A stretch of 64,000 bases of DNA from Galbibacter marinus (lineage in GTDB: Bacteria; Bacteroidota; Bacteroidia; Flavobacteriales; Flavobacteriaceae): positions 59,614 to 123,613 of the forward strand of contig NZ_AMSG01000010.1 in assembly GCF_000300875.1 (NCBI RefSeq), written 5' to 3'. Made by a program: the position numbers and the translations under genes. Every line of letters begins with the position of its first letter. The stretch's first letter is position 1. The notes beneath the pieces were generated by a model that was not told where the DNA came from, ran no database searches, and saw nothing but the letters and a program-made list of their open reading frames with translations. This document shows, piece after piece, positions 39,510-54,212 of this stretch.

Positions 39510-41717
39510 CTAAAAATCTCTAGCTTTTTCCCGAGCCGTTTTTCCTCCGAAAGTATAGAACACTCCCAGAAAATAAAAATTGTCTGCAGAAGGTAGTATT
39601 TTTTGTTCAGGATAAACACCTTCTTGATTGACAGCCCCATAATTATAGTTGGCTACATTACTAAAACCTAGGATATTTGATGCAGAACCATGAATGAACA
39701 AATTCTGCGAAATCAAATATGTAAAACTAAAATCTAAGCTCTGGTAGGGTTTGATATAAGAACCTAAAAATCCATTTTCGTTGTTCGGATTGGTATAGGG
39801 TCGTCCACTAGTATAGTAATAGGAAAGACCTAAGAGGCTGTTAAGTGGATTAACCCATAACTGGGTGTTAACTGAGAGATTGTGTTTGGAATAAAACGTA
39901 GGATTTACTTCAAAAGGGTAATTTTGATAATCTCTTTCCGAATCCAAATAAGTATAAGAAATCCGATATTCTAAGTTGTTAAAGGTTTCGTTATCTGATA
40001 TGAAGAAATCAATACCCCGAGCAGTCCCATATCCTTGGTTATTAAACTCACTTGGATTTCTATCATCCCCAACATAGGAATACTTAACCAAGTTGGTGTA
40101 TTTTTTATTAAAGGCATCTATAAATATAATTCTGTTGTCATTCTCCCAATAAAGGTTGATCCCGAATTGGTTGGCCTTCTCATTGGTTAACTTGTTTTCA
40201 AAATCAAAAATAAGATCACCATTCCTCGGGTTTTGGTAGAAATCTCCATAGTATGGAGCGATAGTTAAATTTTGTATTTTTTTGAATTCCAATCGAAACC
40301 TAGGGGAAATCACATTTTCTTCTAACAATGCAGAAAAATCTGTTCTCAATCCAGATTTTAATATAAGATTTGGTGTGATTTTATATTTTAGGTCAGCAAA
40401 ACTGGTATAGACGGAATTGGTTATTCCTCTATTCATTACATTATCTGTGAAACTAGGATCTACGTAATCAATAAAGTAGTAATTGCTATTGAATTGTAAC
40501 CCTGTGGTCAACTGCAGCTTCTCAAAAATTTTGTAATTTATTTTTGTTTTGAACTGAAGGAAATTGTCAATTACAAATGACTCATCATTGTTTGAGTATA
40601 TCCCGGAGGCATCTCTTTCATTAATACTATACACCATTCCCGCAAAGAAATTGAGCTTATCACTAAAACTATAATCAAAGGTGTTATTACTATAGAAATT
40701 TAAATCCTTCAAGGTAGAGTTAACCTTTTCGTTCTTATTAATAGCAATATCTTCTCTTAGATAGTCAAAACGAGTAATATCAAAACGATTATAGGACTTA
40801 ATCCTTCCATTTTTAAGATTTATCATAGGACTTAACTCAGCAGAAATTACGTTAAAATCCTCATTCCATTCATATCTGGAGGGAAATAAACTCCTATACG
40901 GGGCGAGATTAAGGTACTCCAGTTTGGTTGTTAAAGCAATGGTTTCACTAAAGTTTCTGGACATGGAGGCATCTACACCTACACTTTTCACTGAGACTTC
41001 ATATTCATCATTTAGGACATTACTCTTGGTATCTAAAAGTAATATGCTCGACATTGCACCCCCATATTCTGCACCAAATCCTCCTGTTGAAAAAGAAACT
41101 CCTTCAAACAACATGGGCGAAAATCTACCTCTGCTGGGGATGCTTGGGCCTGACCCTGAGAAAGGTCGGTGTACTTGTAAATCATTGATGAAAACTTTGG
41201 ATTCATAATGATCTCCTCCTCTCACGAAAAATCTTCCGTCTTGTGGGTTATTCTGCATACCAGGATAGGATCTAATCACTGCAGCCATGACATCACCTAA
41301 CGCATTGGGTGTAGTAATCAAATCAATAGAATTCAGAGTAGAAATATATTCTGTTGACCTATTTCGTTTCACCTGAACAACAACCTCTTCTAAACCAGTA
41401 TCGTCGTATTGCATGACGATTTTATAATTTTTTTTGGGGGAGGCATCGTGCTCCACCCTTAAGACAAAATCCTTATATCCCATATAGGTAAACCAAATGT
41501 TAATTCCAAGGTCCTGCTGCTTATCTGATTTTAATTCAAACCTGCCTGTTTTATCAGTGCTAGTGCCGTCTAGGGAATTTTCTATAAAAATATTAACGCC
41601 TTCCATTGGTTTGTTGTATTGATCCACAACAATTCCTTTTATTTCATTCTGTGGATAGAGTAGTGTAGGAAAAATACAGATAAGGACGAGTAAGAGTAAA
41701 CAAGTGTTTTTATGCAT
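39510..41717 (-). CDS. TonB-dependent outer-membrane receptor with CarboxypepD_reg domain
   Basis: A 735-residue outer-membrane receptor. After the signal peptide come a carboxypeptidase D regulatory-like domain (about 25-105, EIKGIVVDQYNKPMEGVNIFIENS), a TonB plug (about 110-220, NALGDVMAAVIRSYPGMQ) and a 22-strand type beta-barrel that ends with an aromatic residue. It is shorter than SusC and has no SusD partner. Its start overlaps the acyltransferase stop by 8 bases, so translation is coupled to the lipopeptide-type cluster upstream. It could take up or export the cluster product; siderophore-like uptake is one possibility. Confidence 0.88.
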   Translation of the reverse strand: MHKNTCLLLLVLICIFPTLLYPQNEIKGIVVDQYNKPMEGVNIFIENSLDGTSTDKTGRFELKSDKQQDLGINIWFTYMGYKDFVLRVEHDASPKKNYKIVMQYDDTGLEEVVVQVKRNRSTEYISTLNSIDLITTPNALGDVMAAVIRSYPGMQNNPQDGRFFVRGGDHYESKVFINDLQVHRPFSGSGPSIPSRGRFSPMLFEGVSFSTGGFGAEYGGAMSSILLLDTKSNVLNDEYEVSVKSVGVDASMSRNFSETIALTTKLEYLNLAPYRSLFPSRYEWNEDFNVISAELSPMINLKNGRIKSYNRFDITRFDYLREDIAINKNEKVNSTLKDLNFYSNNTFDYSFSDKLNFFAGMVYSINERDASGIYSNNDESFVIDNFLQFKTKINYKIFEKLQLTTGLQFNSNYYFIDYVDPSFTDNVMNRGITNSVYTSFADLKYKITPNLILKSGLRTDFSALLEENVISPRFRLEFKKIQNLTIAPYYGDFYQNPRNGDLIFDFENKLTNEKANQFGINLYWENDNRIIFIDAFNKKYTNLVKYSYVGDDRNPSEFNNQGYGTARGIDFFISDNETFNNLEYRISYTYLDSERDYQNYPFEVNPTFYSKHNLSVNTQLWVNPLNSLLGLSYYYTSGRPYTNPNNENGFLGSYIKPYQSLDFSFTYLISQNLFIHGSASNILGFSNVANYNYGAVNQEGVYPEQKILPSADNFYFLGVFYTFGGKTAREKARDF

Positions 41718-42795
41718 TTTGAAAGCTTATAAACATGTTGAAATTATCTTGAGAAATTGGAAATACACTAAAGCTTATTCGGTTAAATAAGTAGTGATCT
41801 TCATCGATTTTAAATACGCTATAATTACCTTGGTTAAAATCTTCTTTGGTCAAGGAGTTTATGTTCAAAGAAATATTTTCGGCTGCAAGAATTTCTTTTG
41901 GTAAATATTTGTGAATGTAAAACCAAGACTCCCACTGATCGTAGAATTTTTCAATATAGTGCTCAAATAGCCCATAAAGTCTCTTAGTAGTGACCTCTGT
42001 AAAGGTCACAATGTCTTTGGTGTTATCCCTTTTAAGTTGGTCAAAAAATTTAATATGAGGAACCATTCCATCTTCAGAATAATAAGCCACAAAGGGAATA
42101 ATGGGAATATCCATGAAATAGGCAATTGTAGATAGCCCAGTCCTAGAGCTAATCGCACTACTTAAAAATGGAATCTCAATGGTTTTCTCTTTGTTATATA
42201 CACCCTTATATCCAGAGTTCCCATCGATATAAGCAAAAAGAGAAAAGCCACTCTTTATCAGTTGCATCATCTCTAGAGCCGTGTTGGGTTTTTCGACATT
42301 TATGATCTTCAACTCATTGTCTAATCCAAATGCATTTTTGAATTTATCGTTAATTGCAAGTATGGTAGATGCTTGATTTTTATAGGTGCTTTCATCTACC
42401 ACCAATGCGATGTTCTTTACCCCATTTAAAATTAACAGGCTTATAGAAGCTTTGCAGAAACCAAGGTGACAGGTGATGTATATTTTGGGTTTGTCTACCT
42501 CCTTAAAGAGTTCATTGTCTTTTATGGTGGAAAGCTTGTTGGATATTTTATGCAGATCCGTGAGGTCAAATTCCCGCAGCCTCATCGTGGTTATTATTTT
42601 TATATAAATATCCCAATGATCTTCTCTTGGAACTTGTGGCAAAAAACGACTTAGACTCGCAGACATAAAATTAAAATCTTTCATCTGATGAGACTCTTTT
42701 TTTAGAATCTCTTTCTCCAAAACCTTTGAAGAGATTGATTTGCGAATCTCAGATTGGTTTTTAGAAAGGATGTTATTGTTATAGGTGATTTCCAT
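41710..42795 (-). CDS. LpxL/HtrB-like acyltransferase of the hybrid cluster
   Basis: A 361-residue acyltransferase-like protein without a signal peptide. Residues about 105-260 resemble the LpxL/HtrB fold. ITCHLGFCKAS supplies the catalytic-type His, and FAYIDGNSGYKG resembles the DQ/DGxxGxKG segment. It is followed by IEIPFLSSAISSRTGLSTIAYFMDIPIIPFVAY, as in the substrate-binding region of lysophospholipid and lipid A acyltransferases. The usual acidic partner four residues after His is not obvious (HLGFCK), so activity is uncertain. The context, after a peptide arginase and a fatty acid synthase, suggests acyl transfer to a peptide or lipid. Confidence 0.72.
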   Translation of the reverse strand: MEITYNNNILSKNQSEIRKSISSKVLEKEILKKESHQMKDFNFMSASLSRFLPQVPREDHWDIYIKIITTMRLREFDLTDLHKISNKLSTIKDNELFKEVDKPKIYITCHLGFCKASISLLILNGVKNIALVVDESTYKNQASTILAINDKFKNAFGLDNELKIINVEKPNTALEMMQLIKSGFSLFAYIDGNSGYKGVYNKEKTIEIPFLSSAISSRTGLSTIAYFMDIPIIPFVAYYSEDGMVPHIKFFDQLKRDNTKDIVTFTEVTTKRLYGLFEHYIEKFYDQWESWFYIHKYLPKEILAAENISLNINSLTKEDFNQGNYSVFKIDEDHYLFNRISFSVFPISQDNFNMFISFQNA

Positions 42796-42798
42796 AGT

Positions 42799-43551
42799 TT
42801 AATTAATGTATTTTACAATTTGCTGAATAGCCTTATAATTGTTGTTCAACGTAAAATGTCCGTGATTCTCATGTACGTAAAGCGTATAATTTTCAAATAC
42901 ATCAGAACACTTATCTCTATAATCGGAGCGAATCAATGGATCCTTGGTTCCAATTAAAATTAACGGATCCGCCCTTTGAACCTTATATTTATTGTTGCCC
43001 TCGAGATGTTGGATCTGTTGAAGTAAGGTTCTGTTTAGACCATTGTTTTTTAAATAAGTAAAGAACATAAGGGTCAAAAATGGATTCTCATTTTTTTCAT
43101 CTTCTGTATAGCTAAAATCAATAAGGTATTTAGAGAAATCAAATAATTTGTTTTGGTGTAATGTCTCTTTGAGTGTGTTATAGAATTCTTTATCTGAGGA
43201 ATCTCCATAGGGAATACTTCCAATGAGGATTAATTTTTTTGAAGTGTCGTATAGTTGGGTGAATTTTGCTGCGAGATTTCCACCATAACTAGCTCCAACG
43301 CAGATACTCTCCTTAGGCGGAAGAAGAGTGTACTCCTGGTAAAAATAAGAGGCTAATTCCTCAAAACTGTCGAGTGAAATATGAGCAGTTTTAACATATC
43401 CTGGGTAATCCGTAAAAACCAGTTCTAAGTGGTTGAAGTGTTCTTGAATTTTGAGATCTTTCAACCAATACTCGGAAGTCATTCCTAAAGGATTGAAAAA
43501 TATGAGCCTAATTTCCCCTGAAGGATTATGAATGTCAGTAATCATACTCAT
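42799..43551 (-). CDS. Alpha/beta hydrolase (thioesterase-like) of the hybrid cluster
   Basis: A 250-residue cytoplasmic alpha/beta hydrolase. The serine nucleophile is in VGASYGGNLA (GxSxG), the acid is probably in GTKDPLI and the His in NHGHFTLN. It resembles type II thioesterases and proline iminopeptidase-like hydrolases. It overlaps the arginase-family gene by 4 bases and precedes the acyltransferase by 3 bases. It may release acyl chains from the carrier protein, edit stalled chains, or hydrolyse the peptide; the sequence does not decide. Confidence 0.8.
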   Translation of the reverse strand: MSMITDIHNPSGEIRLIFFNPLGMTSEYWLKDLKIQEHFNHLELVFTDYPGYVKTAHISLDSFEELASYFYQEYTLLPPKESICVGASYGGNLAAKFTQLYDTSKKLILIGSIPYGDSSDKEFYNTLKETLHQNKLFDFSKYLIDFSYTEDEKNENPFLTLMFFTYLKNNGLNRTLLQQIQHLEGNNKYKVQRADPLILIGTKDPLIRSDYRDKCSDVFENYTLYVHENHGHFTLNNNYKAIQQIVKYIN

Positions 43552-44771
43552 TTTTCGATAACATTTAAGAGTTCAAAGATGATTTCACAGGCAATTTGCT
43601 TGTTGATTTCTGCCTCCGGTGCATCGACGTATAGCTCAACAATATCAACCCCTATAATTTCCTTATTCTTTAGAGTGGATAAGATTAGTTGTTTGCATTG
43701 ACTGGTACTTAACCCATTGATTACTGGAGTGGTTGTGCCCTTAAAATAAATTGGGTCAATAATGTCAAAATCAAACGTGACATAGTATTTTTTGTCCTTT
43801 GGCAATTCCTCGAAGGTATGCTCGTTTTCGATCTGTTCGATCAGTTTATGAGCCCAATAAATGGATTGGTTTTCATTGCTTTTTTGATTAAAATTCACCA
43901 ATCCTCTAATGCCAAATTGATAGGCATGTTTAAGTCCAAATTCAAAACATTTACTCATGAAGTTTCCATGATGATGGACTTCATTGTGATGTTTGATCTT
44001 GTCATAAGTAGAACTATAGGTGTCAGTGTGCGCATCAAAATGTAACACGCATAAATCGTCTCCATATTTTTCAATGGCGGCCTTAATCACAGGAGCGGAC
44101 ACGGAATGATCTCCACCTATGAAAAATGGAGTGACTTTGTCCTGGTCAAACAATTGTTTAGAGAGATTGTATGTTTTCTCATACATAAAGTTTGGAGATT
44201 CTTTGGAATCAAAGAATACATTCCCCAGATCGTATAGCCGTTTATTTTTAATGAGTTCAAACAAAGCGATATATCTTTCTTTTCCTCCTAAAGCTTCTGT
44301 TTCCAACACAGCACCAGGGCCTAAATTAATGTTGTATTTGCTTGAAAATGCTCGTAATGAATTGGGAAACTCACTCGAGGAATAATTAGATCGATTTCCT
44401 ACTCCCAGTGGGACTCCAACGAATACAACTGGCTTTGAAGTGATCTTAGCTGCTTTCGATTCTGTCAAATAGGGCAAATTAAACAAATGAGGGGTATAAG
44501 GCTTTATAGCGGTAATCGCTTTGTCAAATGCGTTGTTCTTTATTAAATATTTTTTATGGGTCAGGGTGTCCAAAATCCCTGTTAGATCCTCACCTATATC
44601 AGGAAACTTCTGCAACATCTCCTTCTCACTTTTTGCATTCTGTAGAAATTGAACTATTTCGATGATTTTATCACCAACCAATAGTTTTTCACCCGTAACC
44701 GTATTAACTAATTTACGTTGATCTTCTTTGTCAATTAGCACGTATGGATTTATCTGAAATACTGAGCTCAT
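43548..44771 (-). CDS. Arginase-family enzyme with N-terminal PqqD/RRE-like domain (probable peptide arginase)
   Basis: A 407-residue ureohydrolase with an unusual N-terminal extension. Residues 1-80 look like a PqqD-type RiPP recognition element (VNTVTGEKLLVGDKIIEIVQFLQ, then a helix and DTLTHKKYLIK). Residues about 110-405 are the arginase domain with all manganese-ligand motifs: GGDHSVS, HFDAHTDTYS, FDFDIIDP and the final VDIVELY. Known peptide arginases (OspR type) convert arginine in RiPP precursors into ornithine, releasing urea. The adjacent precursor genes and the RRE-like domain make a peptide substrate far more likely than free arginine or agmatine. Overlaps its neighbours by 4 bases on both sides. 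Confidence 0.85.
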   Translation of the reverse strand: MSSVFQINPYVLIDKEDQRKLVNTVTGEKLLVGDKIIEIVQFLQNAKSEKEMLQKFPDIGEDLTGILDTLTHKKYLIKNNAFDKAITAIKPYTPHLFNLPYLTESKAAKITSKPVVFVGVPLGVGNRSNYSSSEFPNSLRAFSSKYNINLGPGAVLETEALGGKERYIALFELIKNKRLYDLGNVFFDSKESPNFMYEKTYNLSKQLFDQDKVTPFFIGGDHSVSAPVIKAAIEKYGDDLCVLHFDAHTDTYSSTYDKIKHHNEVHHHGNFMSKCFEFGLKHAYQFGIRGLVNFNQKSNENQSIYWAHKLIEQIENEHTFEELPKDKKYYVTFDFDIIDPIYFKGTTTPVINGLSTSQCKQLILSTLKNKEIIGVDIVELYVDAPEAEINKQIACEIIFELLNVIEK

Positions 44772-45979
44772 ATGGAAATATATGTTTTTACCGTTTTTAC
44801 TATTCTCAAGGTAAATTTTACGATGACCCTGATGAATATATAGGCGATTAAAATGTTATAGATGTTTTCACTAATTCCGCATAATGAAAAGTCTATGTTT
44901 TGAATGCTGAAGCTGGAGGCACTACGGATAATCCGCGTAATTAAAATATAAATTAAATAGAGTAAAAGTAAGTTGGTTATACTTTTGGCTAACGTATAGA
45001 TGATTAGAGGAATGCTTCTTGTTTTGAGTTGTTTACGCTCTTTTTCTGCTAAGTATATGGGCAGTCTTAAATAAGTTTTCGCAACGTACTTTAATAGATT
45101 ACGTGACTGCCTTCCCAGGTTGGATAAATTGAAGAAATCACTGTAGCACCAATAACCATCAAATTTAAAAAACGGAAATAAGTTCACTAGCATGGTAAGT
45201 GAGTTGGCTACAAATATAGTATAGAGGGTTTGTGTAGCCATGGAGTTAGGATACAGCTCTAAGCTGTTGTAATAGGCTATAAATAAAATGACTCCAAGAA
45301 TCCCTTGAATAAATATACCTGCCAAGTTTACAATCATCCTTTTTTCTTTGCTCAGCGACCAGATTGCGGTCACATCGGCAAAAAATACAGGGAAAATGCT
45401 ATAGAATCCAAAACCTATGGATTTAGACTTTACGCCAAACTTCAAGGAAGATGCCGCATGTCCAAGTTCGTGAAATATCATTATAAAAAACAAAGACAAA
45501 TAAGTCAGCCCACTACTAAGTAAAGAGGTTTCACAATGCTGAAATTCGACTGCAGGATTATTTAGCTTAAATAATACGGTTATATTAAAAATTAATAGTG
45601 GGAGAATTAAAACCCAGAAAAGTGTGGGGGTAAATAAGAACTTAATGGGTTTAATAAGATTTTTATATTGAGAATAGGTCAGTATTTCCTTTTTGAACCA
45701 AAATGCAGAGGTCTTGTTTCTATTTAAAGAATGTTCTTTAAGAAATAAAGGAGAGATGTTTTTATCAATGATTTGATGGACTTCCTCTGCAGTGGTCGTA
45801 ATGTCAAATTCTTCACCTATTGTTTGTGCAATTTTCTCATAAGAATCACCATTTTTAATACATGAGAGAATACAATACGTAATCGCATTGATATCGTAAA
45901 AGATACCATTGATAGACAGGGTATACCTGTCTCCCATTTGTTGGATACTAAACTGCGCCTTGTTTTTTCCGCTTTCCAT
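44768..45979 (-). CDS. M50 site-2-type membrane metalloprotease with PqqD-like N-terminus
   Basis: A 403-residue membrane protein of the peptide zinc metalloprotease type (YydH/EpeP-like). Residues about 8-85 resemble a PqqD-like winged-helix (RYTLSINGIFYDINAITY followed by helices and a VHQIID segment). Several transmembrane helices follow. The zinc site HELGHA is at about residue 165 and the distal aspartate is in FKFDGYW. Such proteases cleave modified peptides inside the membrane during maturation. The gene overlaps the arginase-family gene by 4 bases and the DUF2306 gene by 32 bases. The likely substrates are the two precursor peptides. Confidence 0.85.
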   Translation of the reverse strand: MESGKNKAQFSIQQMGDRYTLSINGIFYDINAITYCILSCIKNGDSYEKIAQTIGEEFDITTTAEEVHQIIDKNISPLFLKEHSLNRNKTSAFWFKKEILTYSQYKNLIKPIKFLFTPTLFWVLILPLLIFNITVLFKLNNPAVEFQHCETSLLSSGLTYLSLFFIMIFHELGHAASSLKFGVKSKSIGFGFYSIFPVFFADVTAIWSLSKEKRMIVNLAGIFIQGILGVILFIAYYNSLELYPNSMATQTLYTIFVANSLTMLVNLFPFFKFDGYWCYSDFFNLSNLGRQSRNLLKYVAKTYLRLPIYLAEKERKQLKTRSIPLIIYTLAKSITNLLLLYLIYILITRIIRSASSFSIQNIDFSLCGISENIYNILIAYIFIRVIVKFTLRIVKTVKTYISI

Positions 45980-46592
45980 TTGCTCTTATATAATGTCTTA
46001 TTAAAAAACTTCCGATAATTGCAGGTAATATCCAATTTAAGATCCTGAAATAAAATATATTGTTCACCACCACAAAGGCAGTTGACATCGCGATATAGCT
46101 CCCAATCATCTTACCGATATGCAGTGATATTCTATTCTTTGTTGTGAGTTTTCTGCCTTGTTTTATAAATATTCTATAATCTACCAGATAGGAATTTGCG
46201 GCACCTAAAAGCCCAAAAAATATCAGAATGATACCACTTGTAATACTGCCTTGAGAAAATTGGTAAAATGCGTAAAGGATCATTACCACAGCGGTAACAA
46301 TCATAGTTAATGCTAAAACTTTAAGTTGCTTTGCATTTATCTTAAAAGCAAAGAATCCGCTTAGGAGAAAATACAAAGTTAAAATACCGATGGTGAATAA
46401 AAAAAGATTATAATGGTTGGGTGAACTAGCAATAATCAACGAGATGATGGTTCCTAAAAAACCTGCTATAAAATATAATTTACCGATGCGCTTATGTAGT
46501 GCATTGCCTTTTTTCAGGAATAAAACCATAGCACCAGTGAGCAGTGCTAGGCTTCCAAAAACAATATGAATACTAATTAGGATATTTGTCAT
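45948..46592 (-). CDS. DUF2306-like polytopic membrane protein
   Basis: A 214-residue membrane protein with about six helices. The N-terminal IHIVFGSLALLTGAMVLFLKKGNALHKRIGKLYF has the His pairs and HKRIGKLY motif of DUF2306-like proteins. Function unknown; some relatives may bind haem through conserved histidines. It follows the precursor genes after a hairpin and overlaps the M50 gene. In this context it might be an immunity, export or membrane-partner protein, but nothing in the sequence proves that. Confidence 0.78.
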   Translation of the reverse strand: MTNILISIHIVFGSLALLTGAMVLFLKKGNALHKRIGKLYFIAGFLGTIISLIIASSPNHYNLFLFTIGILTLYFLLSGFFAFKINAKQLKVLALTMIVTAVVMILYAFYQFSQGSITSGIILIFFGLLGAANSYLVDYRIFIKQGRKLTTKNRISLHIGKMIGSYIAMSTAFVVVNNIFYFRILNWILPAIIGSFLIRHYIRANGKRKKQGAV

Positions 46593-46620
46593 CAGATGCT
46601 GTTTACTTATGGTTAAAATA

Positions 46621-46651
46621 GGAGTCTTAATTGTGGTTGAATTAAGACCCC
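46621..46651 (-). terminator. Attenuator/terminator hairpin after precursor genes
   Basis: On the minus strand GGGGTCTTAATT pairs with AATTAAGACTCC (12 pairs, one G-T) around a 7-base loop, followed by TATTTTAACC. It starts 17 bases after the stop of the second precursor gene and ends 29 bases before the DUF2306 start. Probably partial termination that keeps precursor mRNA high. Confidence 0.7.
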
Positions 46652-46667
46652 TAGTAATTCCTCGGTC

Positions 46668-46805
46668 TTAAAGTGCTTTAAGCTCAAGATTTACATCAGC
46701 CTCATTACCTGAACATCTTTTAGCGTCAAGTGCAAAAACTGAAGTCTCAAATCTGTCTTCCAATTCAACTATAGAAATAGAAGAAATTAAATTTGGTGTT
46801 TTCAT
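46668..46805 (-). CDS. RiPP-like precursor peptide A
   Basis: A 45-residue peptide gene too short for most gene finders. Residues 8-24 are SSISIVELEDRFETSVF, a leader-like amphipathic segment nearly identical to peptide B. The C-terminal part from residue 27 is DAKRCSGNEADVNLELKAL, with Arg30-Cys31 and an Ala-Asp-Val-x-Leu-x-Leu tail conserved in B. No signal peptide, GG cleavage site or lanthionine-type Ser/Thr/Cys richness. It is directly followed by a strong hairpin and then by genes for a DUF2306 protein, M50 protease and arginase-family enzyme. Arg18 and Arg30 are conserved candidates for arginase action; Arg30 in the core is the more likely. Confidence 0.8.
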   Translation of the reverse strand: MKTPNLISSISIVELEDRFETSVFALDAKRCSGNEADVNLELKAL

Positions 46806-46898: not shown

Positions 46899-47027
46899 TT
46901 ACAGTGAAAGCGTAACATCCGCACGGTTGTTATTACATCTATCAAGATCTAATGACAACACAGATGTTTCGAATCTTTCTTCTAACTCTACGATGGAGAT
47001 AGAAGACAATAATTCTTGATTTTTCAT
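46899..47027 (-). CDS. RiPP-like precursor peptide B
   Basis: A 42-residue peptide, gapless paralogue of peptide A with 28 of 42 positions identical. Shared positions include residues 8-16 (SSISIVELE), 18-23 (RFETSV), Leu26-Asp27, Arg30-Cys31, Asn34, Ala36-Asp37-Val38, Leu40 and Leu42. Its core from residue 27 is DLDRCNNNRADVTLSL and contains an extra arginine (Arg35). Identity is highest in the leader half and lower in the core, as expected for two substrates of one set of enzymes. It follows the CPBP protease gene after about 120 bases. Confidence 0.8.
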   Translation of the reverse strand: MKNQELLSSISIVELEERFETSVLSLDLDRCNNNRADVTLSL

Positions 47028-47147
47028 CTATTAATGAATTTTGGTTAAAAAATAAACGTATATCTCCAAGGAGACTCTTAAGGCTATGCGTTCATTAGAT
47101 AATGAAGCATTGTACTCTACTTTCGTAAAGAAGTAAAGGGATCATTA

Positions 47148-47930
47148 TTATTTATAGTTTATCCATAATGTTTTGCTCTTTACACCAAAAGGGATATTCA
47201 TTTTCCTTTTGTAGATAATCGTACTTGTTATGGCTAGAATGATAGTCAATGCTCTTATTAAATTTGCGGTCCATCCTCCAAAGGCATTATCTGAGACACC
47301 GTACATATTCCATGATAGATTCATGAAAAAATGTAAGCCTACAGGAACCCAAAGATTGAAACTCCACTCCACGTAGAGCCATGCAAACAAACCAGCACCT
47401 AAAAAGGTTGTAACAAATATCCCTACTAAATCAAAAAGATGTTCGCTTTGGTATGAGTGTAAACTAGCGAACAGCATGGCTCCTATTATTAAGGAAGGGA
47501 AAAATCCAAGTCTACTATTTTTGAATAATTGCCCAAAGAAAAATCCTCGATAATATAGCTCTTCAAAGAAAGCAGCAAAGAGGCAACTGATTATAAAATC
47601 CTTTAGTGTTAAACGGATTTGGAAATCGTTGACAAGACCAAAACCAATAATCATTGGCAAAGAAAAAATCAAGGAGACCCAAAGGCCTTTTATAAAATTC
47701 CCACGTAATCCAAGCGGTGTAAAAACGGTTTTGTTGTTGGTGATAAAAACAAAAAGAAATACGGGAATCCCTATCATTATATAGGTTAGAAAAATACTGA
47801 CCATTTCCAGGTTGAAAATGGCATGTATGTATTTGTAGATGCTTGAAAAGAATACTTTATCTAGAATAAAATAAAAGCAAAAACTACAAAACAATAAAAT
47901 GATATAATGATATTTAATGGATTTCAACAT
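47148..47930 (-). CDS. CPBP (ABI) family intramembrane protease
   Basis: A 260-residue polytopic membrane protein of the CAAX protease/bacteriocin-processing family. The catalytic motifs are present: paired Glu and Arg in FFEELYYRG, and His in FASLHSYQSEH. The last conserved element is the HFFMNLSWN stretch. Family members process peptides or provide immunity in bacteriocin clusters. Here it lies between the carrier protein gene (15 bases upstream) and the precursor genes, so a role in peptide maturation or self-protection is likely. Confidence 0.88.
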   Translation of the reverse strand: MLKSIKYHYIILLFCSFCFYFILDKVFFSSIYKYIHAIFNLEMVSIFLTYIMIGIPVFLFVFITNNKTVFTPLGLRGNFIKGLWVSLIFSLPMIIGFGLVNDFQIRLTLKDFIISCLFAAFFEELYYRGFFFGQLFKNSRLGFFPSLIIGAMLFASLHSYQSEHLFDLVGIFVTTFLGAGLFAWLYVEWSFNLWVPVGLHFFMNLSWNMYGVSDNAFGGWTANLIRALTIILAITSTIIYKRKMNIPFGVKSKTLWINYK

Positions 47931-47945
47931 CTTAATCTTCTGTGA

Positions 47946-48230
47946 TTACTTGTTGTCATTTAAGGCAACTGCCGCTAAATTGGCCAATGAATTAACGTTG
48001 ATAAAAGTTTCTTCATTAAAATCTGTGGGCGGGATATCATACTTCTCCGATAGTATGGTTGCGACCTCTAGAATGACCAAGGAATCTTCGATAATTCCGC
48101 TTTCAGGATTCTCTTCGGTACCAAAGAAACTTTGGTCATCTTTAATGTCCTGTGGACTCATGTCAAGACGAAGCACATCGATTAATACTTTTTTAATTTC
48201 TGTTTTGATTGAAGCTAAATTGTTTTCCAT
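47946..48230 (-). CDS. Acyl carrier protein of the hybrid cluster
   Basis: A 94-residue acyl carrier protein. The four-helix pattern and the phosphopantetheine attachment serine in IIEDSLVILEVATILSEKYDI (Asp-Ser-Leu) are clear. It carries the growing acyl chain of the local synthase. The start is 5 bases downstream of the ketosynthase stop. A dedicated carrier plus a dedicated Sfp-type transferase in the same operon argue for a specialised rather than housekeeping fatty acid. Confidence 0.9.
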   Translation of the reverse strand: MENNLASIKTEIKKVLIDVLRLDMSPQDIKDDQSFFGTEENPESGIIEDSLVILEVATILSEKYDIPPTDFNEETFINVNSLANLAAVALNDNK

Positions 48231-48235
48231 AATCT

Positions 48236-49462
48236 TTAAATATTAATTCCGTTTTTTATTAGTATACTAGACATATTACCTCCAAAAGCGAAAGAGTTGG
48301 AGATGGCATATTCAAAAGGTCTTTCTATTGCTTGATCTGGGATTGCAATAGTATCCGGATATTCTAAAAAATCATTTCGCTCGACATTTATATTGGGTGG
48401 GATAAAACCTTGGTTCATCCCCATGATAGTCGTAGCTAGTTCTACAGCACCAGCGGCTCCGAGACAATGTCCCAACATACTCTTGGTTGAGCTGACATAA
48501 AGCGGTTCTTTGGAATTGCGCTCTTGAGCTAATAAAGCGATACCTTTTAATTCACTGGAATCATTGACTTTAGTAGCCGTACCATGTGCATTGACGTAAT
48601 CGATTTGATCCGCGTGGATATCAGCTTTGTCTAAAACATTTTTCATGCATTGGTAAACTGAACTACCATCTGATTTCAGTGAGGTTGGGTGATATCCTTC
48701 ATTAAAAAAATGATATGATACTACTTCAGCGTAGATGGTCTTCCCAGCTTTCTTAGCAGATTCTAAATCTTCTAATACGAAAAAGGTTGATGAATCCCCT
48801 AACATTAATCCTTCTCTGTTTTGTGAAAATGGTTTGCAGTTGGTGGTCGATAAAGCTTGCAAACAATTAAAGCCTGTGAAGGCCAATTCCGTAAAGATAT
48901 CTACTCCACCAGCAATAATCTTAGTTGCCTTTCCTGATCGTAACATGTCAAGCCCTCTTCCAACGGCATTTGTACTTGCAGAACAAGCGGTAGATATTGT
49001 ACACATGGGTCCGTTAATTCCAAAATGATCCGCGATATCTCCTGTAATTGTTTGAGCAGAGTTACTAGATAGCTCTAACAAATCATCAGGAATCTCATGG
49101 TTCAGAACGTACTGTTTAAAGAACTCAGAAAATGTATGGCTCGCGCCGATAGATGTCCCTATTACTAGTGCTGCATTGGAGATTTCTTCATCACTGAGTT
49201 TAGCGTCTTGGATTGCTTCAGCTATACTGTGAATTCCACAACTGATCTGAAGTGTTTTATCATCCTTTGCAATTTTTTCCAATACCTCTTTATCTAAGAC
49301 ACATGCATTGGTATTTCTGTAAATTGGATGTTCCGTATTAAATAATGTAATCGGTTTAATCCCAGATCGCCCTTCTTTTATACCCTTAGTGTGACTCTGG
49401 GTGTCTGTTCCCAAAGCGCTCAGCACTCCAATTCCAGTAATTACTACTCTCTTTTTATCCAT
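48236..49462 (-). CDS. Beta-ketoacyl-ACP synthase (active KS subunit)
   Basis: A 408-residue FabF-like condensing enzyme. The catalytic triad is intact: Cys in TACSASTNAV, first His in AHGTATKVNDS and second His in LGHCLGAAGAVE. Length is standard. It extends acyl-ACP with malonyl units. With the degenerate paralogue encoded two genes upstream (50210) it would form a KS/chain-length-factor heterodimer, as in type II polyketide, aryl polyene and flexirubin systems. No malonyl transferase is in the cluster; the housekeeping FabD would supply malonyl-ACP. Confidence 0.94.
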   Translation of the reverse strand: MDKKRVVITGIGVLSALGTDTQSHTKGIKEGRSGIKPITLFNTEHPIYRNTNACVLDKEVLEKIAKDDKTLQISCGIHSIAEAIQDAKLSDEEISNAALVIGTSIGASHTFSEFFKQYVLNHEIPDDLLELSSNSAQTITGDIADHFGINGPMCTISTACSASTNAVGRGLDMLRSGKATKIIAGGVDIFTELAFTGFNCLQALSTTNCKPFSQNREGLMLGDSSTFFVLEDLESAKKAGKTIYAEVVSYHFFNEGYHPTSLKSDGSSVYQCMKNVLDKADIHADQIDYVNAHGTATKVNDSSELKGIALLAQERNSKEPLYVSSTKSMLGHCLGAAGAVELATTIMGMNQGFIPPNINVERNDFLEYPDTIAIPDQAIERPFEYAISNSFAFGGNMSSILIKNGINI

Positions 49463-49473
49463 TTCGCATTAAT

Positions 49474-50226
49474 TTATCCAGATATTCCTCCATCTATAAT
49501 AAGCTCCTGTCCGGTCATATATTCCGGTGCAGTTGATCCGAGGTAAAACACAACATTGGCAACTTCATCGGCATATCCCATCCGTTTGTAAATGCTATTT
49601 TCAATTCGGAGTTTGTAGTATTTCTCAGGGATATTCTGTACACTTTCAGTTTCTATAAAGCCTGGAGCTACAGAGTTTATAATGATTCCCATGGAACCAA
49701 TTTCTTTGAGTACTGATTTGGAAAAGGCATTCACTGCAGCTTTGGCAGCTGCGTAAGGAGCATGTCCTGGATTTCCTTTTAATCCTGAAATAGAAGTGAT
49801 GTTGACAATTCTTCCTTCTTTCTTTTTAATAAATATAGGAAGGATTTCACGTACAGAATTCACCACAGATTTTAGGTTTAATTCCATGATTTCCCAGAAG
49901 TATTCATTACTGCAAAACAAAAACGGAGCAGTTTTTCCATGTCCACCTGTGTTGTTTACTAAGACATCAATTGCAGTGAATTCATCTTTGTTTTCTTTAA
50001 AGAGACTTTTTACCTCCTGTACATTAGACATATCACATTGGAATGCTACAGCTTCAGGACAACTAAATTTATCTTTGATGGTGCTCACTAATTCATGGGC
50101 TGCATCCTTATTTGACTTATAACTGAAATACACTTTAAAACCGTGCTCAGCAAATTTTAGGCAAATTGCTTTTCCGATTCCTCTTGAGCCTCCAGAAACA
50201 AATACGGTCTTATGGTCGTTGGTCAT
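49474..50226 (-). CDS. 3-ketoacyl-ACP reductase (FabG-like SDR)
   Basis: A 250-residue short-chain dehydrogenase. NADP-binding GGSRGIGKA is at the N-terminus and the catalytic Ser/Tyr/Lys set is in ITSISGLKG and YAAAKAAV. The C-terminal YMTGQELIIDGGIS is typical of FabG. It reduces 3-ketoacyl-ACP to 3-hydroxyacyl-ACP. The start lies inside the end of the upstream CLF-like gene (17-base overlap). It works between the ketosynthase and dehydratase of the cluster. Confidence 0.93.
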   Translation of the reverse strand: MTNDHKTVFVSGGSRGIGKAICLKFAEHGFKVYFSYKSNKDAAHELVSTIKDKFSCPEAVAFQCDMSNVQEVKSLFKENKDEFTAIDVLVNNTGGHGKTAPFLFCSNEYFWEIMELNLKSVVNSVREILPIFIKKKEGRIVNITSISGLKGNPGHAPYAAAKAAVNAFSKSVLKEIGSMGIIINSVAPGFIETESVQNIPEKYYKLRIENSIYKRMGYADEVANVVFYLGSTAPEYMTGQELIIDGGISG

Positions 50227-51433
50227 TTCTCATTGTTTTTAGCATTAATAATGTGTTGCTGCCACCTACAGAAAAGGTGTGCGTAATACTTGTAAATTCT
50301 TCATTTCCCTTTAGGGAGTCTAAACTGATGTTTTTTGGAGGATCCCTAAGTACGACGGCGTCTTTTAATACATTAGCCAAACGTCCTTTAGTGTGAGCCA
50401 ATAGGGTGGACACTAGGGTGCAATTATTCGATCCTGATAAACCTTCCCCAATAGAAGCCTTGGAGTTACCATAACTGAACTCAAAAGGCAGATCTGATAG
50501 TGCTTCCCATTCGTAGGATTGTATATGCCATGGCAGACAAGCAGATCCGTAAAAGAGTAATGGATCTTTGTCTCTAATTTGGTTTTTATTTAAAAGTTCG
50601 ATCAAATTACCCTGAAGAGAATCAGTGGATCTTTCAAAGATTACTTTGCTTGAACGTTGATCTCTAAACTGTTTGTAGTCCACAATTTCAGCATATATTT
50701 TGGCTCCTCTTTTCTGGGCAGATTCTAAAGATTCGATAACAACAAATGATGCAGCCTCACTGAATATCGATTGATCCTTTTGATTGTCATTGATCAAGTG
50801 TTCGTATACCGATGTTCCATTTGGAGAAACTAATCGTGCTTTCTTATCTGCTAGGTATATATTTAATTCTGTGATTTCATCTACTCCTCCACATACGATA
50901 ATGTCCGTATGGTCATTGTTGATTAAATCAACACCATAGGTAACGCTTTCCTCCCCATATACAAGAGAACCTGGCCCTTTAAGCCCTAATATTCTTGAAA
51001 TATCACCAAGAATGCTGTTGGAAGTTGCTTTAGAGAAATTAAATGGACTGACCCTGTCAGGTCCTTTTTTATACAATTTAGAAAGATAGGACTGTATGGC
51101 TGTGCTGGCACCGAGTGTCGTTGTGATTACAAGTCCTGCCTTTTCTGTAAGTTCTTTATTTTCTAGAAGACCTGCATCTTTTAAAGCGTTGATGCAAGCT
51201 AAAAGTCCTATGCTTGAATATCTATTAGGAAAAGGTGGTCTTAAAGAATCAATTTGTTGTAAAATATCAAATTCTGGAATCGCACCAAAATATTGCGGAC
51301 CCAAATGCTCTGATTCCCAATCTTCTTTCTTGGAGTATGCTAGTTTGTTGTCAAAACTAGATTCAAAATCCTGATTAGACAATCCAAAAGGACTCACAAT
51401 ACCCCAACCTGTTATAACTATTCTTTTATTCAT
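50210..51433 (-). CDS. Ketosynthase-like protein lacking catalytic residues (chain-length-factor type)
   Basis: A 407-residue thiolase-fold protein paralogous to the active ketosynthase. The position of the active-site Cys is replaced (GSLVYGEESVTYGV), the first His region reads FYGSACLPWHI, and the second His region reads KASIGEGLSGSNN. All three catalytic positions are therefore lost. Such partners set chain length or act as decarboxylases in type II synthases. Most known chain length factors have Gln at the Cys site; Glu here is unusual. It starts one base from the dehydratase stop. Confidence 0.88.
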   Translation of the reverse strand: MNKRIVITGWGIVSPFGLSNQDFESSFDNKLAYSKKEDWESEHLGPQYFGAIPEFDILQQIDSLRPPFPNRYSSIGLLACINALKDAGLLENKELTEKAGLVITTTLGASTAIQSYLSKLYKKGPDRVSPFNFSKATSNSILGDISRILGLKGPGSLVYGEESVTYGVDLINNDHTDIIVCGGVDEITELNIYLADKKARLVSPNGTSVYEHLINDNQKDQSIFSEAASFVVIESLESAQKRGAKIYAEIVDYKQFRDQRSSKVIFERSTDSLQGNLIELLNKNQIRDKDPLLFYGSACLPWHIQSYEWEALSDLPFEFSYGNSKASIGEGLSGSNNCTLVSTLLAHTKGRLANVLKDAVVLRDPPKNISLDSLKGNEEFTSITHTFSVGGSNTLLMLKTMRNDQRP

Positions 51434-51434
51434 G

Positions 51435-51878
51435 TTAAGAGAGCACTAATTCACTGTGACAAACCAATTTACCATCCATATGTATTTCACAGTCGAACAC
51501 AAAGAAAGCCATCATCTTATGTTTGAATTTTGCGGAAATTTCTATAAGCTGATCCGGTTTTACCTCTTTTGAAAACGAGGCATTTTTAACTTTAACAGCT
51601 CTTCCCATAATCATCGGAAATCCAGGGGTGGTTTCTGCAGATATGCGTAAGTACAACCCACAGGTCTGAAACATACTTTCCAAAAGAATGACTCCTGGAG
51701 TAATTGGATTCCCCTGAAAATGACCTTGGTAAAAAAAAGCCTTTTCATCAAAAGAGGTAGTGGCTTTAATCCATTTTCCAGGTTCAAAGTCAGTGATTTT
51801 ATCCACTAATGACATAGGCTTATCATGTGGAAGGATATCTTCTGGTTTAGGATACGTTTTTGTAGTTTGCATAATCAA
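51435..51878 (-). CDS. FabZ-like 3-hydroxyacyl-ACP dehydratase
   Basis: A 147-residue hotdog-fold dehydratase. The FabZ-type motif is GHFQGNPITPGVILLESMFQ, with the catalytic His in GHF and the acidic residue in the LES helix. It dehydrates 3-hydroxyacyl-ACP to the 2-enoyl form. The start overlaps the phosphopantetheinyl transferase stop by 32 bases; the second Met (51872) is an alternative. No enoyl reductase gene is in the cluster, so double bonds formed here may be kept. Confidence 0.9.
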   Translation of the reverse strand: MIMQTTKTYPKPEDILPHDKPMSLVDKITDFEPGKWIKATTSFDEKAFFYQGHFQGNPITPGVILLESMFQTCGLYLRISAETTPGFPMIMGRAVKVKNASFSKEVKPDQLIEISAKFKHKMMAFFVFDCEIHMDGKLVCHSELVLS

Positions 51879-52413
51879 TTGCTTTTTTTATCGAAATTTC
51901 TTTAATCAAAATGGTTTTTGGTTGGCCTTGATAACAAAGCACACAATGATAATCTTTATGAATATGAATGTTTTCGGTTTTGATTTTGTTTAACTGAAGA
52001 TTTTCTGGTTGAAACTTCCCTAGACGCTGCCCCGTTAATTTCACAATTGCTTCTAATCGACACCAATCGTCTAATTGGTTAATGTGGAATAGCTTCCCAT
52101 ATACTTCATTGGCAAATTCAAAGCACTTTCTAGGAAGGAAGCGCTTAAATTCAATATCGATACCAATAGGATGATCTGAAATAGCACAGATTACTATTTC
52201 CTTGGAATGTGAGATGCTGATATGGAATGTATCTCCCCAACTTATTGGTTTACCATGCTGATCATATTTGAATTGTAACTGCTGTTGGTCTTTAAAGAAA
52301 TAATTAAACAGAATCCTTGAGAGTTTCCCAGAATAGGACACCTGAAGCTCTGATTGCCTATGGCCATAGAAGACCATTACCGTATCCTTATTTAGAAAAG
52401 GTAAATTTCTCAT
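51847..52413 (-). CDS. Sfp-type 4'-phosphopantetheinyl transferase
   Basis: A 188-residue enzyme that converts apo-carrier protein to the holo form. The magnesium/CoA motif GIDIEFKR and the second motif WCRLEAIVKLTGQRLG are present, as is the ISISHSK segment. It is a specialised Sfp-type enzyme inside the cluster and overlaps both neighbours (dehydratase and adenylating enzyme). The presumed target is the cluster carrier protein at 47946. Confidence 0.9.
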   Translation of the reverse strand: MRNLPFLNKDTVMVFYGHRQSELQVSYSGKLSRILFNYFFKDQQQLQFKYDQHGKPISWGDTFHISISHSKEIVICAISDHPIGIDIEFKRFLPRKCFEFANEVYGKLFHINQLDDWCRLEAIVKLTGQRLGKFQPENLQLNKIKTENIHIHKDYHCVLCYQGQPKTILIKEISIKKAIDYANYKNVS

Positions 52414-53794
52414 GGTTGTCTTTTATAATTAAAGCTTGCATTACCGTAGGGCTAAATCGTTCCTTCAAACGTTCACTGAAATGAACGCTACTATCTGTAT
52501 AACTGCGTTTGTTTCTAATTAACCCCAATTGTAATTGCGCAGTTTCATCACGATGAATATTTACTTTTAACAGGCCAGGTATTTCCTCAAATAGAATGTC
52601 TTCGATTTGAAAACGCCAAAGTTCACCTGTAGCCTTAAAATGGTCAGTTGCCCTACCTAGGATATAATATTCATTCTGTTGTTTGAACACAATATCACTA
52701 GTTTCCAACCTAGTGGATGCCTTATGGTATTGATGTGTGCCTATAAGGTAACCCAAGAAAGCTGAAGGAGTTTTAATATGTAAATAACTGCTGACTTGTC
52801 CCTGGTAATGTCCTATCGCACTACCAGTAGATAATTGTACATTTCCTATTGGAGTTCCTATGTAATTTGGACGAAAGGCATGGACTTCCTCATAGGCTAA
52901 TGTATAGGTGGACACCCTCGGACCAGCTTCGGTTATACCATATGTTTTATGATAATAAGTACATGGGAATTGCTTTGTGAACTTAACAAAACAGTTTTTG
53001 CTCAGATACCCTCCGCCTATAGCAACAAACTTAAGGGGGGCAAATTTCAAATGACTTTGATAAGCGCTTAAAACGCGAACAAGAGTTGGGGTTATAAAGA
53101 AATTTGTCGGTCGGTGTTTTTTAAGGACATCATTTAGGTAAAGTGGAATAAAGCGATTTGGCGCTAGAATAATATCAGCTCCTGCAACCAAATGAGATAA
53201 AAACTGTCCAATTAAACTATAAGAATAATATATTGGTAAGCAGATTAGAGTACGATCCTTTTCATTGATCCCTAGTGCTTCTATGTTTGATTTTATATTT
53301 TGAAGAACCCCAGCTGCTCGACATTTAATTATTTTTTTGATTCCAGTAGAGCCCGAACTAGTTAGTAAGAGCGAACAATCTTCAGTCATTGGAGTGTCCA
53401 ACTGAGATTCGTTGATTCTCAGTTCTCCAAAAGGTGTGTCAAAAGATCGGAAATAGTCATCGGAAACACTTAAAAGACTTTGTTTTTGACCTATAATTGC
53501 AAAATAAGTGATTTCATTTAGCAAGTTTGGTTGGTTCTTAGACACTTCAAGAATTAGAGGTATCCCTTTTTGTTCCAAAATAAATAGGAACAACACCACC
53601 AAATCCAAAGAATTCTCATAAAAATCGAAAACAACTATTTTTTGCTCGAAATTTACGTTGTGAAACCTTCGTTTGAGTTGAGCTATAGCAGAGCAAACCT
53701 CTTGATATTTTAAAGTTTTATTCTCCTTTACATCTATAATCGACGACGATTTGAAGTGGTTAAGGGCATATTTTATTTCACTAATTAAACTCAT
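52388..53794 (-). CDS. Acyl/aryl adenylate-forming ligase
   Basis: A 468-residue ANL-superfamily enzyme. The phosphate-loop motif is LLLTSSGSTGIKKI and the adenine-binding motif is KTYGITEAGPR. The C-terminal domain is short, with the catalytic lysine possibly in NHEKFTFSK at the extreme end. It would activate a carboxylic acid and load it on the carrier protein as a starter unit, as the adenylating enzymes of aryl polyene clusters do. The substrate could be fatty or aromatic. Overlaps the phosphopantetheinyl transferase gene by 26 bases. Confidence 0.85.
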   Translation of the reverse strand: MSLISEIKYALNHFKSSSIIDVKENKTLKYQEVCSAIAQLKRRFHNVNFEQKIVVFDFYENSLDLVVLFLFILEQKGIPLILEVSKNQPNLLNEITYFAIIGQKQSLLSVSDDYFRSFDTPFGELRINESQLDTPMTEDCSLLLTSSGSTGIKKIIKCRAAGVLQNIKSNIEALGINEKDRTLICLPIYYSYSLIGQFLSHLVAGADIILAPNRFIPLYLNDVLKKHRPTNFFITPTLVRVLSAYQSHLKFAPLKFVAIGGGYLSKNCFVKFTKQFPCTYYHKTYGITEAGPRVSTYTLAYEEVHAFRPNYIGTPIGNVQLSTGSAIGHYQGQVSSYLHIKTPSAFLGYLIGTHQYHKASTRLETSDIVFKQQNEYYILGRATDHFKATGELWRFQIEDILFEEIPGLLKVNIHRDETAQLQLGLIRNKRSYTDSSVHFSERLKERFSPTVMQALIIKDNHEKFTFSK

Positions 53795-53795
53795 C

Positions 53796-54212
53796 TTAAG
53801 ACAGCCTGTTTAGTTCCATAAACTTATTCATGAATTTTTGAAATGATTCTTCGAAGTCTTGTTCTTCGATTTCTTTTGTATTTTCCGTTAAATAGGTGTA
53901 ATCCTGCATTAAATTATTGGACAACCCAAGTCCGTATGGAATGTTTTTTTCAATCATAAACCTCAGAAATACAATTTCATAAGATTTTTGCTGTTCTACT
54001 ATTGTGTCCATTGCTTCTTTATAAGTATTGAGAAGCTCTATTTTCTTTAAGGGATTTAGCGCAATCTTAGCCTTGTATGCAGTTGCAACTGCAGAATAAG
54101 CTTCTAAAAGAGGGGTGGTCTTTTCTCTGGATTCGAGTTCCTTTATAAATTTTTTTATTTCTTTTTTGTTTCCTTCTCTACAGTTTGAAACTAGTTGTCT
54201 TATATTCTTCAT
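53796..54212 (-). CDS. Helical hypothetical protein, first gene of hybrid cluster
   Basis: A 138-residue all-helical soluble protein of unknown function. Segments such as TPLLEAYSAVATAYKAKIALNPLKKIELLNTYKEAMDTIV and IVFLRFMIEKNIPYGLG resemble short TPR-like proteins that I associate with flexirubin and related polyene clusters, though this is recollection and not proof. It starts the operon, one base before the adenylating enzyme, and has a promoter-like box 20 bases upstream. Confidence 0.7.
   Translation of the reverse strand: MKNIRQLVSNCREGNKKEIKKFIKELESREKTTPLLEAYSAVATAYKAKIALNPLKKIELLNTYKEAMDTIVEQQKSYEIVFLRFMIEKNIPYGLGLSNNLMQDYTYLTENTKEIEEQDFEESFQKFMNKFMELNRLS

What the first reader, a model, noticed from the sequence alone, without database searches (positions are those of the whole stretch)
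41710..54212. Hybrid RiPP and type II fatty acid/polyene synthase cluster, candidate new lipopeptide system
Seen: one minus-strand run of tightly packed genes joins an adenylating ligase, Sfp-type transferase, dehydratase, CLF-like and active ketosynthases, ketoreductase and carrier protein to a CPBP protease, two paralogous precursor-like peptides, DUF2306, M50 protease, arginase-family enzyme, hydrolase and LpxL-like acyltransferase. Known: peptide arginases make ornithine in RiPPs, and selidamide-type peptides are N-acylated on Orn or Lys by GNAT enzymes; lipolanthines and goadvionins combine peptide and acyl pathways. Inferred: here ornithine is formed at Arg30 and acylated by a non-GNAT, LpxL-like enzyme with a locally made chain. 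I know no described system with this gene set.
Basis: partly seen in the sequence, partly recalled or inferred. Interest (0 to 1): 0.95.

Follow-up and report, generated by a model that had tools for sequence, protein, structure and literature searches.

The report
Arginase-linked ribosomal lipopeptide gene cluster
This stretch of bacterial DNA holds one tight row of genes that joins two tiny gene-encoded peptides, each with an arginine beside a cysteine, to an arginase-family gene, an acyltransferase-type gene and genes for a small fatty-acid-type synthase, and it likely makes a new sort of fat-tailed peptide; the arginase and acyltransferase genes sit together in eight other bacteria, seven of which have such peptide genes beside them.

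Summary
M50, arginase and LpxL-fold genes recur together at 8 of 80 arginase loci fetched, the 8 best-scoring ones; precursor matches (30, in 7 of 8 genomes) all lie in that cluster. Arg-Cys is in 117 of 120 listed precursor homologues. The synthase is a variable companion (5 of 9 loci). In Neolewinella agarilytica it is flexirubin-type: three flexirubin families pass their cut-offs, with no dialkylresorcinol synthase over cut-off in that genome. The arginase is PF00491 with an extra N-terminal domain, unlike OspR (PF12640). The acyltransferase family lacks the acid of the HX4(D/E) motif (22 of 22). Best reading: Arg becomes Orn, then the peptide is acylated, most likely on Orn, with an ACP-borne chain. 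No activity or product has been shown. New variant of lipidated RiPPs, with a possible aryl-polyene-peptide branch.

The parts
53796..54212 (-). 138-aa protein of unknown function, first gene of the run
   Evidence: ORF; no Pfam match over threshold; 45% identical homologue at the same place in Chryseobacterium L011
52388..53794 (-). AMP-forming acyl ligase, predicted to load a starter acid onto the ACP
   Evidence: PF00501 95 bits; best NCBIfam match AmcH, 128 bits against a cut-off of 370
51847..52413 (-). Sfp-type phosphopantetheinyl transferase
   Evidence: NF042922 HetI 44 bits, AusB 33 bits, all under cut-off; homologues in L011, L012
51435..51878 (-). FabZ-like dehydratase (TTG start)
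   Evidence: PF07977 78.8 bits
50210..51433 (-). CLF-like ketosynthase homologue without the catalytic Cys
   Evidence: PF00109 55 bits; no TAC[SA], HGT or GH[CT]xG motif; aligned
49474..50226 (-). ketoreductase (FabG-like SDR)
   Evidence: PF13561 186 bits
48236..49462 (-). active-type ketosynthase (Cys160 in TACS, His293 in HGT, His332 in GHCLG)
   Evidence: PF00109 and PF02801; motifs
47946..48230 (-). acyl carrier protein with DSL phosphopantetheine site
   Evidence: PF00550 19.3 bits, just under gathering score 20.8; DSL motif
47148..47930 (-). CPBP (Rce1-like) membrane protease
   Evidence: PF02517 56.8 bits; EELYYRG motif
46899..47027 (-). precursor peptide A (42 aa), leader plus core beginning about Arg30-Cys31
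   Evidence: family
46668..46805 (-). precursor peptide B (45 aa), Arg30-Cys31
   Evidence: family
45948..46592 (-). DUF2306-like membrane protein
   Evidence: PF10067 30.9 bits, just under gathering score 31.6
44768..45979 (-). M50 membrane metalloprotease (HELGH, FDGYW) with PqqD-like N-terminal domain; predicted leader protease
   Evidence: PF02163 31.8 bits; NF041824 daptide_HExxH 107 bits, cut-off 300, and PqqD-family hit NF050069 E 0.0011, under cut-off
43548..44771 (-). arginase-family (PF00491) enzyme with an N-terminal PqqD-like domain; predicted peptide arginase
42799..43551 (-). alpha/beta hydrolase (GASYG), possible thioesterase
   Evidence: PF00561 45 bits; motif
41710..42795 (-). 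LpxL/PatA-fold acyltransferase with C-terminal PqqD-like piece; predicted peptide acyltransferase
39510..41717 (-).
   Evidence: PF00593 61 bits; 50% identical in L011, 29% in L012
38929..39393 (-). DUF2141 protein
   Evidence: PF09912 89.7 bits; homologues in L011 and L014
38222..38929 (-). 235-aa protein of unknown function, last conserved gene
   Evidence: homologues in L011, L012 and N. agarilytica

Best explanation
The gene row 38222-54212 is predicted to be a RiPP pathway in which the PF00491 arginase likely turns the core Arg30 into ornithine and the LpxL-fold acyltransferase likely attaches to the peptide, most likely to that ornithine, an acyl chain predicted to be built by the local KS/CLF synthase. 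Proposed order: the leader (SIVELEERFETSV...) is recognised by PqqD-like domains of the maturases; the arginase releases urea and bares a primary amine beside Cys31; the ligase, KS/CLF, KR, dehydratase and ACP (no enoyl reductase in the row, so probably an unsaturated chain) make an acyl-ACP; the LpxL-fold enzyme, whose relatives use acyl-ACP (recalled), transfers the chain; the M50 and perhaps the CPBP protease remove the leader; the outer-membrane receptor handles the product. Shown by sequence and linkage: the gene set, its recurrence, the Arg-Cys conservation, the kept metal ligands; the folds are predicted models. Inferred: each reaction, the acylation site, the order and the role of the receptor.
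For: Linkage: of 80 arginase-homologue loci fetched, eight (L011-L018, the best-scoring) have the LpxL-fold gene, seven of them also M50 in the locus; L017's M50 lies just past the locus edge beside its LpxL-fold gene. The other 72 have neither at E 1e-10. Genome-wide searches of 8 genomes gave one strong M50 match each and one LpxL-fold match each (two in G770), all in the cluster; the L017 genome's M50 and LpxL-fold proteins and L018's LpxL-fold protein were not in the query alignments. All 30 precursor matches (E 0.01 or less) in 7 of 8 genomes lie in the cluster; 26 of 30 have Arg-Cys, 4 have Lys-Cys, and each of the seven genomes has at least one Arg-Cys peptide; the precursors of L013 and L017 were not among the seeds. 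Arg-Cys in 117 of 120 listed homologues; in 91 of 120 no other Arg follows the Cys. Metal-ligand residues in 9 of 9 arginases. Lys stands in for Arg in four peptides of one cluster, as expected if a side-chain amine is what matters. The N-terminal domain of the arginase, that of the M50 protein and the C-terminal piece of the LpxL-fold protein pick each other out over other segments (P 5.5e-5, 1.1e-4). The LpxL-fold gene stays with M50 and arginase where no synthase is near (L013, L015, L016). KgrD, a PF00491 arginase, makes Orn beside a Cys-derived ring in enteropeptins (PMC12703449).
Against: The LpxL-fold family lacks the acid of HX4(D/E): Lys or Arg in 22 of 22. The direct comparison of the acyltransferase C-terminal piece with the M50 N-terminus is not significant (P 0.033), and arginase N-terminus against acyltransferase C-terminus was weaker (P 0.0012) and in the reverse search (0.0048). 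The Marinifilum arginase (L016) lacks the N-terminal domain (24 residues before the catalytic domain) and has Cys for Asp in DxDxxDP. No product, mass or activity is known. The Thalassotalea genome gave no precursor match. The precursor search was seeded with 15 peptides, 14 of them with Arg or Lys before Cys, so 117 of 120 is biased towards that motif; 244 of 364 homologues were not listed; the leader Arg of ELExR is just as conserved (120 of 120).
Confidence: 0.5

Rival explanations
1. Same pathway, but the acyl chain goes on the new N-terminus after leader cleavage, or on the Cys thiol, and ornithine serves another purpose (charge, membrane binding).
For: Arg-Cys lies at the presumed leader-core border and Cys is as conserved as Arg: 105 of 120 have it at one fixed distance from the leader motif; known lipolanthine-type RiPPs are N-terminally acylated (PMC13060382 passages).
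Against: An N-terminal or thiol acceptor does not need an arginase; Lys replaces Arg in four peptides of one cluster.
Confidence: 0.25
2. Two pathways side by side: the synthase and LpxL-fold protein make an aryl-polyene-like outer-membrane lipid, and the M50 and arginase make an unacylated ornithine peptide.
For: Flexirubin clusters carry a phospholipid/glycerol acyltransferase of their own (PMC3992019 passages); TonB receptor and DUF2141 suggest an envelope role (inference).
Against: The LpxL-fold gene stays beside M50 and arginase in three loci without KS or CLF genes in the flanks (L013, L015, L016) and ends in a piece resembling the arginase's N-terminal domain.
Confidence: 0.15
3. The arginase-family enzyme acts on another guanidino or amidino substrate, or is a structural partner, and the conserved Arg is read by a protease as part of its site.
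For: Closest NCBIfam profiles are agmatinases (129-130 bits, under cut-off); Arg also precedes many protease sites (recalled).
Against: Extra N-terminal domain of leader-binding look, strict linkage to the precursors, kept metal site, KgrD precedent.
Confidence: 0.1

Closest known systems
Enteropeptins with arginase KgrD (PF00491)
   Same: PF00491 arginase acting on an Arg beside a Cys in a ribosomal peptide (PMC12703449)
   Different: no radical SAM enzyme or methyltransferase in the window's row; precursors, M50, LpxL-fold protein and synthase differ
Selidamides (kamptornamide, phaeornamide)
   Same: predicted acylated ornithine in a RiPP
   Different: selidamides are acylated by GNAT enzymes, and related GNAT clusters have NHLP or Nif11-type leaders; their use of PF12640 arginases is recalled; here LpxL/PatA fold, PF00491 and another leader
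Lipolanthines, goadvionins, lipoavitides
   Same: lipidated RiPPs; some clusters carry their own acyl-making synthase (title of a cited paper seen, paper not held)
   Different: class III lanthipeptides acylated at the N-terminus; no lanthionine synthetase among the proteins scanned here
Flexirubin / aryl polyene clusters
   Same: KS, CLF-like, KR, DH, ACP, ligase; in N. agarilytica FlxA, FlxB and FlxY over cut-off
   Different: partner is a peptide cassette; no DarB over cut-off in that genome; the window's own genome has no FlxA over cut-off
Daptide and epipeptide M50 proteases (NF041824, NF058609)
   Same: 8 of 8 M50 proteins match both profiles
   Different: window scores far under the cut-offs (107 of 300 and 67 of 225 bits), and it has an extra PqqD-like N-terminus

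Membership tests
[quoted passage not shown]
   PF00491 145.8 bits and no PF12640 match at E 0.1; GGDH, DAHxD and DxD in 9 of 9; motif definition from PMC12703449 and PMC10028609
PF00491 ureohydrolases | fold and binuclear metal ligands | tested here: met
Enteropeptins | Arg next to Cys in the core | tested here: met
   both window precursors; 117 of 120 listed homologues
Enteropeptins | radical SAM thiomorpholine-forming enzyme and methyltransferase in the cluster | tested here: not met
   no such family among 18 proteins scanned at E 0.1; a radical SAM/SPASM gene was seen in L016 among ten neighbour proteins scanned in other loci, and a methyltransferase in N. agarilytica
Selidamides | GNAT acyltransferase | tested here: not met
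   no GNAT match among 18 proteins scanned at E 0.1
Selidamides | fatty acyl group on an Orn or Lys side chain | not testable with these tools
   needs mass spectrometry
Lipolanthine-type RiPPs | class III lanthionine synthetase | tested here: not met
   no match among 18 proteins scanned
LpxL/LpxM acyltransferases (PF03279) | fold and profile | tested here: met
LpxL/LpxM acyltransferases (PF03279) | catalytic HX4(D/E) | tested here: not met
   His kept, acid replaced by Lys (15) or Arg (7) in 22 of 22; motif itself recalled, and names E127 of LpxM as catalytic
Flexirubin biosynthesis (window) | FlxA tyrosine ammonia-lyase and DarB over cut-off in the genome | tested here: not met
   own genome: FlxA profile 350.5 of 700 bits, DarB 39.7 of 550 bits
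Flexirubin biosynthesis (N. agarilytica relative) | FlxA, FlxB, FlxY | tested here: met
   741, 349.7 and 531 bits, cut-offs 700, 340 and 520
Flexirubin biosynthesis (N. agarilytica relative) | DarB dialkylresorcinol synthase in the genome | tested here: not met
   best 36.1 of 550 bits in G772
RRE / PqqD-like domain | PqqD-family profile match or fold | tested here: inconclusive
   M50 N-term: NF050069 E 0.0011, under cut-off; arginase N-term by profile comparison with M50 N-term (P 2.1e-4, 5.5e-5) and model topology; a PqqD-type hit (MftB2, E 0.088) in only 1 of 33 arginases; LpxL-fold C-term weaker
Daptide metalloproteases | NF041824 over its cut-off | tested here: not met
   107 of 300 bits

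The most novel reading that the evidence does not exclude
A new RiPP class of acyl-ornithine peptides whose acyl supply is interchangeable, including aryl-polyene pigments: in Neolewinella agarilytica a flexirubin-type polyene synthase has a ribosomal peptide cassette where flexirubin makers have the dialkylresorcinol genes, so that coloured polyene chains are joined to gene-encoded Orn-Cys peptides by an acyltransferase of the LpxL/PatA fold rather than a GNAT.
Probability: 0.3. Interest if true: 0.92.

Novelty: new variant of a known kind. Interest (0 to 1): 0.82.

Why it matters
If right, ribosomal peptides can be lipidated by a second, unrelated acyltransferase fold fed directly from a carrier protein, and a common enzyme family (PF00491) has been turned into a peptide arginase by adding a leader-binding-like domain. 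It would link two large families of Bacteroidota secondary metabolism, RiPPs and type II polyene pigments, and give simple mass-shift tests (Arg to Orn, then one acyl group) in culturable strains.

Tried and rejected
Considered and dropped: the window's arginase as an OspR-type enzyme (wrong family); the window's synthase as flexirubin (no FlxA or DarB over cut-off in the genome); the worry that the Chitinophagales cluster L014, whose four first-seen precursors have Lys-Cys, has no substrate for its arginase (a fifth precursor there has Arg-Cys).

Led nowhere or weak: comparison with genomic PqqD proteins is uninformative, since two of three were read on the wrong strand and one sequence is no profile. 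The sequence profile of the acyltransferase found no PDB chain. A plasmid search at E 1e-20 gave one Vibrio agmatinase. Wider, overlapping genome draws for the arginase at E 1e-30 found only the window's own genome: 1 of 395 each in phylum, class and order draws, so the system is rare and the draws added no loci; in these and at most four candidates per genome were scored in the rows shown. The fold search of the whole arginase model did not test its N-terminal domain by itself. The Thalassotalea precursor candidate (signal-like leader, Asn-Arg-Cys, L018 8409-8630) was not matched by the precursor profile and is left out of all counts. L019 to L090 (72 of the 80 loci) have no M50 or LpxL-fold neighbour at E 1e-10 by BLAST against the window's proteins and were taken as ordinary ureohydrolase loci; they were not looked at further, except L021.

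Literature: ten full-text searches gave no paper that I recognised as describing this gene set; of their listings I opened PMC12703449 (first of five parts), PMC10028609 (outline and two sections, the second only its first part), passages of PMC13060382, PMC3992019, PMC9248904 and PMC10734526, and outlines of PMC12636315 and PMC13252029; the rest I saw as listings only. A cited paper on local fatty acid synthases in RiPP clusters (PMC11321927) is not held.
Full report
What is there. On the minus strand, 19 genes from 54212 down to 38222 follow each other with gaps from -32 to +120 bases. Three more belong to the run: a TonB-dependent receptor that overlaps the acyltransferase gene, a DUF2141 protein and a 235-aa protein; all three are found in the same order in Chryseobacterium carnipullorum (L011).

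The precursors. Two paralogues of 42 and 45 aa share the leader (SSISIVELE[ED]RFETSV) and Arg30-Cys31. A profile of 15 such peptides found 364 homologues, of which the best 120 were listed. In 117 of these 120 the core Cys is preceded by Arg, in two by Lys and in one by Asp; 105 of 120 keep the same distance from the leader motif; 91 of 120 have no further Arg after the Cys. The tail after Arg-Cys varies. Fourteen of the 15 seeds carried Arg or Lys before Cys, so this figure is biased, and the leader Arg of ELExR is equally conserved (120 of 120).

The constant core. By BLAST against the window's proteins, the eight best-scoring loci (L011 to L018) have a LpxL-fold gene at E 1e-10 or better, seven of them with M50 too; the other 72 have neither. 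In L011 to L016 and L018 the M50 gene lies next to the arginase. In L017 (Neolewinella agarilytica) three Arg-Cys precursors, M50 and LpxL-fold gene lie 8 to 10 kb from the arginase, with a SPASM gene of grasp-with-spasm type (74 of 175 bits, under cut-off) between. Whole-genome searches in eight genomes (the window's own and seven of the loci; L016's genome is not held) gave one strong M50 match and one LpxL-fold match each, two LpxL-fold in G770, all in the cluster; one further M50 match in G768 is marginal (23.7 bits). The N. agarilytica proteins and the Thalassotalea LpxL-fold protein were not in those query alignments. The precursor profile gave 30 matches at E 0.01 or less in 7 of 8 genomes, every one in the cluster region; 26 are Arg-Cys, 4 Lys-Cys, and each of the seven genomes has an Arg-Cys peptide, the Chitinophagales cluster included. 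L016, not held as a genome, has one precursor-like ORF reading ERDCCGC.

The variable synthase. KS, CLF-like, KR and dehydratase genes are in the window, L011, L012, L014 and N. agarilytica: 5 of 9 loci. L018 has a KS and a dehydratase-like gene some kilobases on but no CLF-like gene seen. L013, L015 and L016 have none of these in the fetched 10 kb flanks. In N. agarilytica the synthase is of flexirubin type: FlxA 741 bits (cut-off 700), FlxB 349.7 (340), FlxY 531 (520), upstream of the precursors on the same strand. That genome has no DarB over its cut-off (36.1 of 550 bits), whereas Chryseobacterium G767 and Aquimarina G769 have both FlxA and DarB over cut-off on other contigs than the cluster. 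Flexirubin itself joins an aryl-polyene acid to a dialkylresorcinol (PMC3992019, passages). The window's own genome has neither over cut-off, and its ligase is nearest to AmcH (128 of 370 bits), so its starter is unknown.

Mechanism. Arg to Orn by the arginase is the step best supported (linkage, conservation, kept metal site, KgrD precedent). Acylation by the LpxL-fold protein follows from its constant presence beside M50 and arginase, also where no synthase is near, and from the fold; the missing acid is a real weakness. Orn as acceptor is suggested by the need for an arginase at all and by Lys taking the place of Arg in four peptides; an N-terminal or thiol acceptor is not excluded. A local acyl-ACP as donor is inferred from gene content.

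Rarity. The arginase homologue was found in 1 of 395 genomes in each of three overlapping draws and this CLF type in 1 of 395, always the window's own; the six other genomes of the window's genus have only weak arginase-family matches (best E 3.1e-15). The cluster is patchy, which would fit horizontal spread (not tested).

Verdict.

Noticed in passing
L126 (N. agarilytica, G772:C26:150000-169900) with L124 and L017: Flexirubin-type genes (FlxA, FlxB, FlxY over cut-off), methyltransferase, TonB receptor, ACP, KS, CLF-like, DH directly upstream of three Arg-Cys precursors, M50 and LpxL-fold genes.
   Followed up: yes
L015 14731-16929 and L017 3251-5491: Grasp-with-spasm type ATP-grasp and SPASM maturase genes, all scored under their cut-offs, beside the cluster in both Neolewinella species (the L017 ATP-grasp gene by look of the sequence only); whether they act on the same peptides is unknown.
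   Followed up: partly
L016 11994-13367: Radical SAM/SPASM RiPP maturase (TIGR04463 200 bits, under its cut-off of 525) in the Marinifilum cluster, whose precursor reads ERDCCGC and whose arginase lacks the extra N-terminal domain.
   Followed up: partly
L018 8409-8630: Thalassotalea (Gammaproteobacteria) has M50, arginase and LpxL-fold genes with a small ORF upstream that has a signal-like leader and Asn-Arg-Cys; an ABC-type exporter seems to follow, by look of the sequence.
   Followed up: partly
L014 4772-7080: Two LpxL-fold genes in tandem in the Chitinophagales cluster that has both Lys-Cys and Arg-Cys precursors; one acyltransferase per acceptor type is a guess.
   Followed up: no
window 54662-58956: Upstream neighbours look like an alpha-amylase and SusE/SusD-type starch-use genes (recalled from sequence, not scanned), same strand, separated from the run by 449 bases.
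   Followed up: no
window 37339-38280: CarboxypepD_reg_2 protein overlapping the last conserved gene of the run; it may be part of the same transcript; it was not looked for in the relatives.
   Followed up: no
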